From assembly GCA_015068605.1 (NCBI GenBank), contig SVKF01000008.1, positions 1 through 64,000 on the forward strand: a DNA stretch of 64,000 nucleotides, read 5' to 3'. Of this stretch, positions 3,623-62,516 are shown in pieces (positions within the stretch are counted from its first letter, which is position 1; each line of letters begins with the position of its first letter). The notes beneath the pieces were generated by a model that worked only from the letters and a program-made list of their open reading frames with translations, was not told the DNA's origin and did not search any database. A program made the position numbers and the translations under genes. Source of the DNA: Oscillospiraceae bacterium (GTDB lineage Bacteria; Bacillota; Clostridia; Monoglobales; Monoglobaceae).

Positions 3623-3684
3623 TATGAAAATAATAAGCTTTAAAAATTCTTTACATTTTTAAGAAAATGTGATATAATACTATC

Positions 3685-3825
3685 ACCAAACAAAATTAAA
3701 AAGCACACTGGTGATTTTTGCTTATTGGCAAAAACGCACGTTTATTTTCTATGCCTGTGTGCTGATAATAAATTTTGTTTGGTAGCAAGTGCGTTTTTCG
3801 GGCGCAGCTTGTCTGCGCTTTTTTT
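3685..3825 (+). ncRNA. Structured RNA family member A (P1/P2/pseudoknot/terminator)
   Basis: Promoter TTTACA 3650-3655 N17 TATAAT 3673-3678. P1 3685-3697:3771-3783 (13 bp perfect); P2 3702-3708:3757-3763; long-range AAAAACGCAC 3730-3739:GTGCGTTTTT 3789-3798; terminator hairpin 3802-3818 plus T7. Confidence 0.75.
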
Positions 3826-3864
3826 GTTAAACGCACAACGCACAGTTGTTGCCAAACAATTACA

Positions 3865-3916
3865 CCCAAAAGAGGTTATAGCAAAACGATTTCGTTTTGC
3901 TATAACCTCTTTTGGG
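3865..3916. repeat. Perfect palindrome, 25-bp arms, 2-nt loop
   Basis: CCCAAAAGAGGTTATAGCAAAACGA TT TCGTTTTGCTATAACCTCTTTTGGG. Confidence 0.9.
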
Positions 3917-3924
3917 GATAGACT

Positions 3925-29667: not shown

Positions 29668-29795
29668 CCGTAAAGGATTAATATGAAAAATCCCTCGCAA
29701 ACACGAGGGATTACAAATTCATAAGAATTATCAAATCTCCTCGGCAGGATTTACGGCATAGCCACCTGCTGTCTGCGGAAAATATTCAACTGATT
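29668..29795 (-). ncRNA. Ribosomal protein L10 leader
   Basis: Reverse strand CCGCAGACAGCAGGTGGCTATGCCGTAAATCCTGCCGAGGAG, then terminator hairpin ATCCCTCGTGTTTGCGAGGGATTTTT. Confidence 0.88.
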
Positions 29796-29800
29796 AAAAA

Positions 29801-36657: not shown

Positions 36658-37029
36658 TTTTTTTACCCTCTTTCCATGTTGAATATAGCACCGCAACAGA
36701 CAAACGCACCGCTACGGTTAAGATTAAAATTGTATGTAAAATTTAATTATCTTCTATGTTTAATTATGCCTAATTTTCCATTTTGCACAACATTTCCAAA
36801 TATTAGACACACTGTTTATATAACTATAACACATCCCTTACAAAAAATCAAGTACTTTTTGAAATTTTTTTATCATTTTAAACAAAAAATTTCTCCCCTT
36901 CCTATGCAATCTCACTTTATTTTGTCAAATATTGTTAAAATTTAACGATCTTTTAAAAAATCTTCCTTTTATTTATATTTTTATTGACTTTATGCAAAAA
37001 ATATGTTATCATATACGATGAATTATCCG

Positions 37030-37145
37030 TTGAAGTGTTCGGAATTATCAGACCGGATACTGAGGAAACTCTGGAGAATCCCGTTTTCGGGTGCCGAAGG
37101 TGCAAGGCTTTATGCCGAATCTCTCAGGCAAAAGGACAGAGGTTC
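37030..37145 (+). ncRNA. Glycine riboswitch (single recognisable aptamer)
   Basis: GGAGAATCCCGTTTTCGGGTGCCGAAGGTGCAAGGCTTTATGCCGAATCTCTCAGGCAAAAGGACAGAGG; downstream terminator AGTCAGGGGTATGCCTGACTTATTTTATTTTTT. Confidence 0.93.
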
Positions 37146-37224
37146 ATTTCTAAATATTTTAATGAATCATTGTGCTTTGAGAGTCAGGGGTATGCCTGAC
37201 TTATTTTATTTTTTAACAGAAAGG

Positions 37225-38721
37225 ATGAAAAAAATGATTGAGTCTATCACAAAAATCAACACTTCAATCAATGATGTTGTTTGGGGAGTTCCTGCTCTGT
37301 TTCTTCTCATAGGAACAGGTGTTTTGATGACACTTCTCCTCAAATTTTTCCAATTCACACACTTTGGACACACTATCAAAGAAACAATCGGCGGAATGTT
37401 CAAAAACAAGGATATTCTGAAAAACGAAAAAGAAGGACAGGTTTCACAGTTTCAGGCTATGTGTACTGCTCTTTCCGCAACAATAGGTACCGGTAATATC
37501 GCAGGTATCGCTCTCGCAATCACAATGGGTGGCCCCGGTGCTATTTTCTGGATGTGGATTGCGGCGATTGTCGGAATGCTGACAAATTACTCTGAAAATG
37601 TTTTAGGTATTTATTTCAGAAGAAGAAACAAAAACGGTGAATGGTGCGGAGGCTCTATGTACTTCCTTCAGGATGGTCTCGGGTCATACAAAGGCTGCAA
37701 ACATATAGGTAAAATCCTTGCTGTCCTCTTCTCTGTTTTTGCGCTCTTAGCTTCTTTTGGTATTGGTAACATGGGACAGGTTAGCTCTATCAAGGATAGT
37801 ATCAGCACTCTTGTTCCCAAAATGAATCCTACAATATACTCGCTTATTATCGGCGGAATCGTTGCTTTTGTTGCTGCACTTGTTATTCTTGGAGGACTTA
37901 AGAGAATCGCAAAAGCCAACGAAAAGATTGTTCCTTTTATGTCTGTTTTCTACATAATCGGTTCACTCATTATAATAGGTGTCAACTATGACAAAATCAT
38001 TCCTGCATTTGGTTCAATCTTCGGAAATGCATTTACCCCAACAGCAGTTGTCGGCGGTACTGCAGGTGCTGCACTCAAAATGGCAGTAACATGGGGCTTT
38101 AAGCGTGGAGTATTTTCAAACGAGGCAGGGCTTGGTTCTTCCGTTATGGTTCACTCCTCCTCTAATGTTAAAGAACCTGTTGTTCAGGGCCTATGGGGAA
38201 TTTTCGAAGTATTCTTCGATACCATCATCGTGTGTACAATGACAGCTCTTGTTATCCTGACAAGTGGAGTTGTTAATATACAAACAGGCGAATCAATCAG
38301 CGGTGCTACAAAGCTTGGTCTTGCAACGGAAGCATTTACGGGTCAATTCGGTACTGCCGGAGGAATTTTTATCGCTATCGCAATTACGCTTTTTGCATTT
38401 TCAACAGTTCTTGGATGGAGTTATTACGGCACAAAGGCTTGGGAATATCTTTTCAAAGGCAAAGGGCTTTGGGTTTATAAATTCATATTCATCGGGATGA
38501 TTATCGCTTGTTGTGTTCTAGACACCTCCCTCGCCGTTGACCTTTCCGATACATTTAACGGGCTCATGATGATCCCTAACCTTATTGGTGTTATCGCACT
38601 TTCCGGGCTTGTTGTCAAGATTACTAAAAACTACAAAGACAGAAAATTTAAGAATAAAGACATTAAACCAATGCTTTCAGCATTTGAAAACATTCAGACT
38701 GAACAAGAAAATAACCTTTAA
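37225..38721 (+). CDS. Sodium:alanine/glycine symporter (AGCS family)
   Basis: SALSATIGTGNIAGIALAITMGGPGAIFWMW, RGVFSNEAGLGSS; start with AAGG RBS downstream of the riboswitch. Confidence 0.94.
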   Translation: MKKMIESITKINTSINDVVWGVPALFLLIGTGVLMTLLLKFFQFTHFGHTIKETIGGMFKNKDILKNEKEGQVSQFQAMCTALSATIGTGNIAGIALAITMGGPGAIFWMWIAAIVGMLTNYSENVLGIYFRRRNKNGEWCGGSMYFLQDGLGSYKGCKHIGKILAVLFSVFALLASFGIGNMGQVSSIKDSISTLVPKMNPTIYSLIIGGIVAFVAALVILGGLKRIAKANEKIVPFMSVFYIIGSLIIIGVNYDKIIPAFGSIFGNAFTPTAVVGGTAGAALKMAVTWGFKRGVFSNEAGLGSSVMVHSSSNVKEPVVQGLWGIFEVFFDTIIVCTMTALVILTSGVVNIQTGESISGATKLGLATEAFTGQFGTAGGIFIAIAITLFAFSTVLGWSYYGTKAWEYLFKGKGLWVYKFIFIGMIIACCVLDTSLAVDLSDTFNGLMMIPNLIGVIALSGLVVKITKNYKDRKFKNKDIKPMLSAFENIQTEQENNL

Positions 38722-52451: not shown

Positions 52452-52862
52452 TTATTTGCGTCTTCCACAGCCGTTGCAATAAGGAGCACTTTTCTTATTT
52501 TTTCTTCCGCAACTTCCACATATCCACCCATCGGTATTTAACACATCCTTTTCACTTGCATCTTTTTCATGCGCTAAAGCCGATAAGGAATAGTTTGGAG
52601 TCTCTGATTTTCTGCTTTCAATATCACAGACCTTATCAACAAGTTCTCCAAAACCATATATAACAAGGTGGCTAATCCATATAAAAAGTGTACCAAAAAT
52701 CAGCATAATTGCACCTAAAGCAATAAATATTTCATTTTCGTCATCAAGTCCGAATAAAAGCAAAGATCCTCCTCCTAATACATTTGCTATTATTTCCAAT
52801 ATGCAAAATGCTTCTGTCACGCCTTTAATCTTTTTACCAATCTCATTAAACACATCTCTCAC
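52452..52862 (-). CDS. Membrane protein with C-terminal zinc ribbon
   Basis: Two hydrophobic segments; WICGSCGRKNKKSAPYCNGCGRRK; GGAGG RBS. Confidence 0.75.
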   Translation of the reverse strand: MRDVFNEIGKKIKGVTEAFCILEIIANVLGGGSLLLFGLDDENEIFIALGAIMLIFGTLFIWISHLVIYGFGELVDKVCDIESRKSETPNYSLSALAHEKDASEKDVLNTDGWICGSCGRKNKKSAPYCNGCGRRK

Positions 52863-52881: not shown

Positions 52882-53037
52882 AAAAAATGCACCAACCGAA
52901 GTCAGTGCATAAAAACACATTCTCCGATTGCTGCGACACAACTTTTTAAAGAACCACAATAGGATACCAAAATAGAGGACGTGTTTTTGGCAAAAAAACA
53001 CTCCTACAATGATTCTTTAACTATTCAGTTATGTCGC
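52882..53037 (-). ncRNA. Structured RNA family member E, leader of 52452-52862
   Basis: Minus promoter TTGATA (53073-53068) N17 TATAAT (53050-53045). P1 53037-53027:52943-52933 (11 bp); P2 53020-53011:52955-52946 (10 bp); A-tract 52988-52979:U-tract 52920-52911 (10 bp); terminator ATGCACTGACTTCGGTTGGTGCATTTTTT. Confidence 0.75.
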
Positions 53038-53199
53038 AATATTTATTATATCACATATTCGACAAAATATCAATAGTTTTTTTCACCTCATCAGTCACCC
53101 AATTGTCAAGGCAAAAAGAGTTTTTATTTGAATATCAGTTTTATGTGATTATGTGTAAAAACTATTTACAATTGGAAATAGTTATGTTATAATAATAGT

Positions 53200-53347
53200 G
53201 CGAAACAAAATTGAATAATAGTTGCGTTAGGTGTTTTTTCCTTTGGTAAAAACGCACCTTTATTAATTGCACCTATGTGACTATTATAAAAGATTTTGTT
53301 TCGCGACAAAGTGCGTTTTTCGAGCGCAGTTTGACTGCGCTTTTTTT
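53200..53347 (+). ncRNA. Structured RNA family member B
   Basis: Promoter TTTACA 53165-53170 N17 TATAAT 53188-53193. P1 53200-53212:53292-53304; P2 53215-53222:53280-53287; AAAAACGCAC 53248-53257:GTGCGTTTTT 53311-53320; terminator GCGCAG/CTGCGC plus T7. Confidence 0.75.
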
Positions 53348-53396
53348 AGTTAAACGCACTAACGCACTATGTCGCCAAAACAAATCAAAAAACTTG

Positions 53397-61992: not shown

Positions 61993-62077
61993 GCGCCTAT
62001 TTATTTTTTGTATATTTTCTTAATTAATATAAGAAAAAATGTTGCTAAAATATAAAATATATGTTATAATATATATT

Positions 62078-62260
62078 GCCAAATGATTTGAAATATTTCT
62101 GCAATTATGGGATAATGTATCCCTCTTTTTTCGTATCCTATGTTTGAATTTGATAAAAACACAAATTCCACACATGGGATATGCAGAAATATCTTAAAAT
62201 TGTTTGGCGACAATCGGAGTTTGTGTTTTTTATGCGTCGACTCCGGTTGGCGCATTTTTT
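62078..62260 (+). ncRNA. Structured RNA family member C, leader of 62280-62516
   Basis: Promoter TTGCTA 62042-62047 N17 TATAAT 62065-62070. P1 62078-62089:62197-62208; P2 62093-62103:62182-62192 (11 bp perfect); AAAAACACAAA 62155-62165:TTTGTGTTTTT 62220-62230 (11 bp perfect); terminator ATGCGTC...GGCGCATTTTTT. Confidence 0.78.
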
Positions 62261-62279: not shown

Positions 62280-62516
62280 ATGAATATAAAAGAAGAACTT
62301 TTTAAAAGTGTGGCTCTCGAAATTCTGTCCGATGAAATAAGTAATATTAAAATAGATGTTGGAAACATCGAAGACACCCAAGCCATAAAAATTCTTGGAG
62401 AAATTCAGGACATTCTTCACAATAAATATAATGAAGATGATTTTATAATCGTTGAAGAAATTGTCCGTGTATTTGAAAAATATCATATCAGCGCAGGTCC
62501 ATGCCACGATTTTTAA
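62280..62516 (+). CDS. Hypothetical small protein (78 aa)
   Basis: AAAGGAGGAAAT RBS; MNIKEELFKSVALEILSDEISNIKIDVGNIEDTQ... Confidence 0.75.
   Translation: MNIKEELFKSVALEILSDEISNIKIDVGNIEDTQAIKILGEIQDILHNKYNEDDFIIVEEIVRVFEKYHISAGPCHDF

What the first reader, a model, noticed from the sequence alone, without database searches (positions are those of the whole stretch)
3715..3798. U-tract / A-tract / U-tract in every copy: possible triple helix or strand-exchange switch
Each copy has, in order, a U5-7 tract (A 3715-3719; B 53234-53239; C 62126-62131; E minus 52998-52992), an A5 tract (A 3730-3734; B 53248-53252; C 62155-62159; E minus 52988-52984) and a second U5-6 tract after P1 (A 3794-3798; B 53316-53320; C 62226-62231; E minus 52915-52911). 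In A, B and E the A-tract can pair locally or long-range. Pseudoknots with this order can form U.A-U major-groove triplexes (established for telomerase RNA and some riboswitch pseudoknots). In A and B the same GTGCGTTT strand can also pair with AAACGCAC just past the terminator, so a three-way competition is possible.
Basis: partly seen in the sequence, partly recalled or inferred. Interest (0 to 1): 0.82.

Follow-up and report, generated by a model that had tools for sequence, protein, structure and literature searches.

The report
Four-strand RNA switch controlling transcription termination
The repeated U-A-U pattern belongs to a previously uncatalogued family of RNA leaders in gut Clostridia, about 20 per genome here, in which one A-rich strand swaps between two U-rich partners and so probably decides whether the gene behind it is transcribed; the data point to strand swapping, not to a triple helix.

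Summary
All tract coordinates are correct. The tracts are conserved far beyond chance in 128 homologues, and they mark pairing strands, not a triplex. Order along the RNA: N (U-tract), M (A-tract), T (tail ending in the second U-tract), Ta/Tb (terminator arms). M pairs locally with N or long-range with T. T pairs with M or with Ta, which would block the terminator. Ta pairs with T or Tb. So N:M plus T:Ta should mean read-through, and M:T plus Ta:Tb should mean termination. Each helix covaries or is partner-specific. Bases flanking the A- and U-tracts covary antiparallel (Watson-Crick), not parallel as a U.A-U triplex would need, and the A-tract lies on the wrong strand for a telomerase-type triplex. 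The family has no Rfam match and I found no published description. It occurs in 82 of 393 sampled Clostridia genomes; a 300-genome phylum sample gave no match besides the window's own genome. About 20 copies lie in this genome. In the homologue set 70% have a start codon with a ribosome-binding site, typically about 20 nt past the terminator. C and E are such leaders; A and B belong to a standalone subtype with weaker switching. The trigger is unknown; direction and function are inferred, not measured.

The parts
3650..3678 (+). Copy A promoter: -35 TTTACA 3650-3655, -10 TATAAT 3673-3678
   Evidence: Sequence. In 127 homologues a -10 box matching at least 5 of 6 bases is present in 110, most often 5 nt before the RNA start.
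3684..3826 (+). Copy A RNA: P1 3685-3697/3771-3783, P2 3702-3708/3757-3763, terminator 3802-3818 plus U-tract; standalone subtype
   Evidence: CM hits 129 bits with R1 (training member) and 88.5 bits with R2.
3715..3721 (+). Copy A strand N (UUUUUGC), local partner of M
   Evidence: Sequence; N:M covariation over homologues
3728..3739 (+). Copy A strand M (GCAAAAACGCAC)
   Evidence: Sequence; pairs with N or T
3785..3798 (+). Copy A strand T (GCAAGUGCGUUUUU), partner of M (3730-3739 with 3789-3798) or of terminator arm/loop 3803-3811
3829..3836 (+). Copy A strand T' (AAACGCAC), further competitor for T downstream of the terminator
   Evidence: Sequence; 8-nt exact complement of T
53199..53348 (+). 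Copy B RNA (N about 53232-53241, M 53245-53257, T 53311-53320, terminator 53324-53340, T' 53352-53359); standalone subtype
   Evidence: CM hits 130.9 bits and 96.2 bits; sequence
52883..53038 (-). Copy E RNA (N 53001-52991, M 52990-52981, T 52926-52911, terminator 52910-52887); cis leader
   Evidence: CM hits 46.8 bits with R1 and 96.6 bits with R2; in neither training set
52452..52853 (-). Gene led by E: 133-aa putative small membrane protein, start codon 29 nt after the CM hit, AAAGGAGG upstream
   Evidence: A 28%-identical protein follows a homologous leader in L114.
62077..62260 (+). Copy C RNA (clamp 62146-62152/62162-62168, M 62155-62165, T 62215-62230, terminator 62232-62255); cis leader
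   Evidence: CM hits 33.3 bits with R1 and 75.5 bits with R2; in neither training set
62280..62516 (+). Gene led by C: 78-aa small protein, start codon 19 nt after the CM hit, AAAGGAGG upstream
   Evidence: A 42%-identical protein follows a homologous leader in L056.

Best explanation
The tracts are the cores of the pairing strands of a leader-RNA family that controls transcription by attenuation. The RNA starts at the base of a long stem (P1-P2). Its apical loop holds strand N (with the first U-tract) and strand M (with the A-tract). After P1 come strand T (with the second U-tract) and an intrinsic terminator with arms Ta and Tb. Pairings alternate: M with N or T; T with M or Ta; Ta with T or Tb. 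If N:M persists, T pairs with Ta, the terminator cannot form and the gene about 20 nt downstream is transcribed. If M leaves N and forms the long-range pseudoknot M:T, Ta pairs with Tb and transcription stops. Shown computationally: all the helices, their conservation and covariation, the promoter, the terminator and the gene spacing. Inferred: that they form in the cell, that M:T is the off state, and that an unidentified signal (small molecule, RNA-binding protein, or transcription speed/ions) tips N:M against M:T. C and E are cis leaders; A and B are standalone copies with weaker alternatives.
For: P1, M:T and the terminator counted on 103 homologues: 98.8% of cells paired against 84.7% shuffled and 34-57% slid; M:T alone 99.2% with compensatory changes such as UA40/CG34 and GC73/AU24. 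T:Ta 90.3% paired with both-sided changes. N:M: mean score 15.6 own, 14.0 with M from another sequence (best of 100: 14.5), 7.3 shuffled; A-to-G changes in the tract mostly met by C (5) or U (2) in N; antiparallel covariation. In a set of 17 dissimilar sequences own duplex energies beat all 200 partner swaps for T:Ta, M:T and N:M. Mean energies are balanced: M:T -15.7, T:Ta -14.5, terminator -16.9 kcal/mol. -10 box most often 5 nt before the RNA start. A start codon with a ribosome-binding site within 120 nt past the terminator in 86 of 122, most at +14 to +32. Independence: the 80 named loci were found with a pattern on the tail alone, yet carry P1, N and M.
Against: No transcription, probing or genetic data. 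T:Ta in copy E is weaker (-8.7 kcal/mol) and C uses a different local clamp for M. Standalone copies such as A and B have no downstream gene to control and the subtype shows weaker N:M and T:Ta on average, so the model does not explain them. P1-P2 is long, so P1, P2 and all of M:T may not coexist without a bend or partial opening. Tails are similar between sequences, so partner swaps are only moderately discriminating. Sequence relatedness inflates shuffle statistics, though slid and swapped controls agree. Some -10/ORF counts depend on my scoring rules.
Confidence: 0.82

Rival explanations
1. [quoted passage not shown]
For: The U-A-U tract order is real and a 10-bp A5:U5-containing pseudoknot helix is conserved. 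Loop 1 is long enough to reach the groove.
Against: Flanking bases covary antiparallel with the U-tract strand and scarcely in parallel register. Where A5 becomes AAAAG the change is met on the 5' side of the U-run, as expected for antiparallel pairing. The purines sit in the 5' strand of stem 2, so loop 1 runs antiparallel to them (geometry from PMC5696562; parallel requirement from PMC4689454). About a tenth of homologues lack a U-run of 4 or more near M.
Confidence: 0.05
2. Same attenuator, but the signal is read by an RNA-binding protein (or a general factor such as a cold-shock protein or NusA/NusG) and not by a small molecule: the leader has switching strands but no aptamer pocket.
For: Nearly all strongly conserved positions are explained by pairing; few conserved unpaired bases remain (the CAA linker, the GG before A5, pyrimidines after M). 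Targets are diverse, as expected of a global regulator.
Against: No candidate protein identified. P1 itself has a conserved sequence (GCNANACAA) beyond pairing need, which could be part of a pocket.
Confidence: 0.4
3. Trans-acting small RNAs: the terminated ~145-nt RNA, especially the eight similar standalone copies, acts by base pairing through M or T, or titrates the factor that acts on the cis leaders.
For: Eight standalone copies in this genome with no gene close downstream, most retaining promoter, M, T, terminator and a T' segment.
Against: In homologues 70% have a start codon just past the terminator, and M and T match within each copy better than between copies, which is a cis signature. 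Trans pairing was not tested.
Confidence: 0.15
4. A selfish or structural repeat (REP/MITE-like) whose hairpins serve only as terminators, with no switching.
For: Multi-copy, intergenic, sometimes tandem.
Against: T:Ta and N:M are specific to each copy and covary, which a passive repeat would not need; promoter and gene spacing are conserved; sequences have diverged far while structure is kept. Only one viral contig carries the tail pattern. No target-site duplications were looked for.
Confidence: 0.06

Closest known systems
ZTP/ZMP (pfl) riboswitch
   Same: A pseudoknot in the leader competes with an intrinsic terminator through shared strands during transcription (PMC7337938).
   Different: There the ligand-stabilised pseudoknot is the antiterminator (ON); here the pseudoknot strand T is itself the antiterminator strand, so the pseudoknot should mean OFF. 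Different strand order, and no Rfam match.
Amino-acid operon attenuators of the trp type (general knowledge)
   Same: A chain of mutually exclusive helices (1:2, 2:3, 3:4) ending in an intrinsic terminator.
   Different: No leader peptide was seen in the loci read; the middle helix is a long-range pseudoknot across a P1-P2 stem; targets are not biosynthetic operons.
Telomerase RNA / guanidine-III type triplex pseudoknots
   Same: H-type pseudoknot topology with a U-rich first loop.
   Different: Purine tract on the opposite strand of stem 2 from telomerase RNA, and the loop strand pairs Watson-Crick and antiparallel with it instead of forming a groove triplex.

Membership tests
Any of 4227 Rfam 15 families (including riboswitches, T-box, ZTP, preQ1, SAM-II) | Covariance-model match | tested here: not met
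   No relevant match for the window at gathering scores, for A, B and E at E up to 10, or for 16 homologue loci at E up to 1 (one marginal cobalamin hit lies elsewhere in L053).
Major-groove triplex pseudoknot (telomerase type) | Third-strand pyrimidines parallel to the stem-2 purine strand | tested here: not met
   Purines are in stem-2 5' strand M; covariation is antiparallel; geometry. Not a direct structural test.
Transcription-attenuating leader | Mutually exclusive antiterminator and intrinsic terminator | tested here: met
   T:Ta against Ta:Tb share Ta; both conserved.
Transcription-attenuating leader | Position between a promoter and a gene | tested here: met
   -10 box just before the RNA start; start codon close behind the terminator in 86 of 122. 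Not met for the eight standalone copies, among them A and B.
Riboswitch | Direct small-molecule or ion sensing | not testable with these tools
   Needs in-line probing or transcription assays with ligands.
Riboswitch | Association with genes of one pathway that suggests a ligand | tested here: not met
   77 downstream proteins are diverse: 11 BspA-type LRR, 3 CHAP, zinc ribbons, HTH, many others outside the commonest families.
Amino-acid/trp-type attenuator | Short leader peptide with regulatory codons overlapping the helices | not tested
   None noticed while reading the loci, but no systematic uORF test was made.

The most novel reading that the evidence does not exclude
A new class of metabolite- or signal-sensing RNA switch, present in up to about 20 copies per genome, that acts as a global regulator of surface, secreted and small accessory proteins in uncultured gut and rumen Clostridia, with a four-strand relay in which one U/A-tract helix is exchanged for another.
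Probability: 0.45. Interest if true: 0.85.

Novelty: new variant of a known kind. Interest (0 to 1): 0.7.

Why it matters
If right, a common and uncatalogued RNA family controls many accessory and surface genes in the Oscillospiraceae/Monoglobus side of the gut flora, a group with few genetic tools and, from my own knowledge, few known regulators. The number of targets and their mixed functions imply a general signal, as c-di-GMP riboswitches do elsewhere. The strands are sharply defined, so the mechanism can be tested with a handful of mutants, and the covariance models made here can annotate the family elsewhere.

Tried and rejected
Rfam at gathering and permissive thresholds: nothing relevant. 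First MAFFT alignments misaligned P1 because P2 is highly variable; a hand-set structure on nine copies fixed this. Reading the family as a standalone sRNA, from A/B alone: dropped as the general reading when homologues showed close downstream genes. Mobile or viral element: one viral contig only. Seven literature searches for a described motif, attenuator or triplex precedent found no description of this family (one search gave the triplex review used); discovery papers on 50 and 26 genomes were checked only by term search. A first anchoring script mis-set M in a few copies and was corrected. A telomerase-structure paper was not held, so the U-U-A order of telomerase rests on my own knowledge.

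Full report
OBSERVATION. All coordinates in the finding are correct. Copies A (3684-3826 +), B (53199-53348 +), C (62077-62260 +) and E (52883-53038 -) are members of one RNA family. Covariance model R1 was built from nine sequences, including A and B but not C or E. It finds all four copies. In the window's own 1.59-Mb draft genome R1 gives 23 matches at E up to 1, and the broader model R2 gives 23 at E up to 0.01, 20 of them at E below 3e-6.

DISTRIBUTION. R1 matches 56 of 148 relative genomes, with up to 19 matches in one genome. R2, built from 103 homologues, matches 82 of 393 genomes sampled across the class, in 48 of 221 genera. In 300 genomes sampled across the phylum, only the window's own genome matches at E up to 1e-6, which also serves as a false-positive control; a few genomes of the same class in that sample were negative too. 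Nearly all are confirmed by the model. One viral contig carries the pattern.

ANATOMY. Typical order: promoter with a -10 box most often 5 nt before the RNA start (110 of 127 match at least 5 of 6 bases); P1 5' strand (GCNANACAA...); variable P2; N (...GUAUUUUUAYC); M (GGUAAAAAYGCANGCUC); a short pyrimidine stretch; P2 and P1 3' strands; a CAA linker; T (GGAGYUAUGCRUUUUU); Ta (GUGCGURGCUUCG); Tb; a U-tract. Then, in 86 of 122 copies with enough downstream sequence, a start codon with a ribosome-binding site within 120 nt, mostly at +14 to +32.

WHICH STRANDS PAIR. P1, M:T and the terminator together: 98.8% of cells paired, 396 cells with changes on both sides, no shuffle as high, and slid versions at 34-57%. 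T:Ta alone is 90.3% paired with five pairs changed on both sides. N:M scores well above shuffles and above partner swaps. With 17 mutually dissimilar sequences, own duplexes are stronger than in all 200 partner swaps for T:Ta (-14.2 against a best swap of -12.4), M:T (-15.5 against -12.7) and N:M (-10.6 against -10.0). M is shared by N:M and M:T, T by M:T and T:Ta, and Ta by T:Ta and Ta:Tb, so these helices exclude one another. The mean predicted energies of M:T, T:Ta and the terminator lie within about 2.5 kcal/mol, as expected of a switch.

TRIPLE HELIX OR STRAND EXCHANGE. A parallel third strand and an antiparallel Watson-Crick partner predict different covariation next to the tracts. The base 3' of the A-tract covaries with the base 5' of the U-run (0.37 bits) and the base 5' of the A-tract with the base 3' of the U-run (0.32 bits), 0 of 2000 shuffles each. 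The parallel registers give 0.065 bits (8 of 2000) and 0.025 bits (798 of 2000) over all 117 sequences, and 0.02-0.04 bits with about 900 of 2000 shuffles in the 71 with a U-run of exactly 5. When the fifth A is G, the N partner is C in 5 and U in 2 of 8. In addition, H-type geometry puts the loop-1 strand antiparallel to stem-2's 5' strand (description of guanidine-III in PMC5696562), while pyrimidine-motif triplexes require a third strand parallel to the purines (PMC4689454). Here the purines are in stem-2's 5' strand. A triplex is therefore unlikely, though not excluded for a strand that loops back.

TARGETS. Of 77 downstream proteins, 11 match BspA-type leucine-rich repeats and 3 CHAP; others are lipoprotein-like, zinc-ribbon, HTH or small uncharacterised proteins. 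The 78-aa product behind C is 42% identical to one behind a leader in another family's genome. The 133-aa putative membrane protein behind E has a relative behind another leader. So leader and gene travel or are retained together. Tandem leaders occur (for example L102, L136, L147, L053, and L035/L039 from this genome), and at least some second copies have their own promoter (L053, L035/L039).

STANDALONE SUBTYPE. Eight copies in this genome, including A and B, have no gene close downstream. As a group they carry weaker N:M and T:Ta (means -6.4 and -11.3 against -8.7 and -14.9 kcal/mol in cis leaders), although A itself is not weak in either. Their role (decoy, small RNA or relic) is open.

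STATUS OF THE CLAIMS. Shown by computation: homology, helices, exclusivity, promoter and gene spacing, absence from Rfam. Inferred: that M:T is the off state, that the switch responds to a signal, and the nature of that signal. Not tested: any biochemistry. Novelty rests on Rfam 15 and an open-access literature search only; a description in a subscription journal or supplement could have been missed.

Noticed in passing
window 37061-37149 (+): Glycine riboswitch (one aptamer matched), Rfam RF00504, overlapping the start of the 572-aa ORF listed at 37003-38721.
   Followed up: no
window 29675-29796 (-): Ribosomal protein L10 leader, Rfam RF00557.
   Followed up: no
window 3865-3917: A long hairpin (CCCAAAAGAGGTTATAGC...GCTATAACCTCTTTTGGG) follows copy A; other standalone copies are also followed by a second terminator-like hairpin (AAAAAGACGGC...GCCGTCTTTTT).
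   Followed up: partly
L008/L009 (contig C20 of the window's genome): One standalone copy has its downstream segment displaced by an extra stretch bearing a long A/T-rich inverted repeat, possibly an insertion.
   Followed up: no
L010, L021, L023: In genus g9 relatives a copy resembling the standalone subtype lies about 155-180 nt upstream of a gene whose product looks like the GTPase TypA/BipA, with a T'-like segment after its terminator.
   Followed up: partly
L102, L136, L147, L053, L035/L039: Tandem pairs of the leader; in L053 and L035/L039 the second copy has its own promoter.
   Followed up: partly
window 62280-62516 and 52452-52853: Two small uncharacterised protein families (78 aa; 133 aa putative membrane protein) recur behind this leader in distant genomes; the 133-aa protein has no Pfam or NCBIfam match.
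   Followed up: partly
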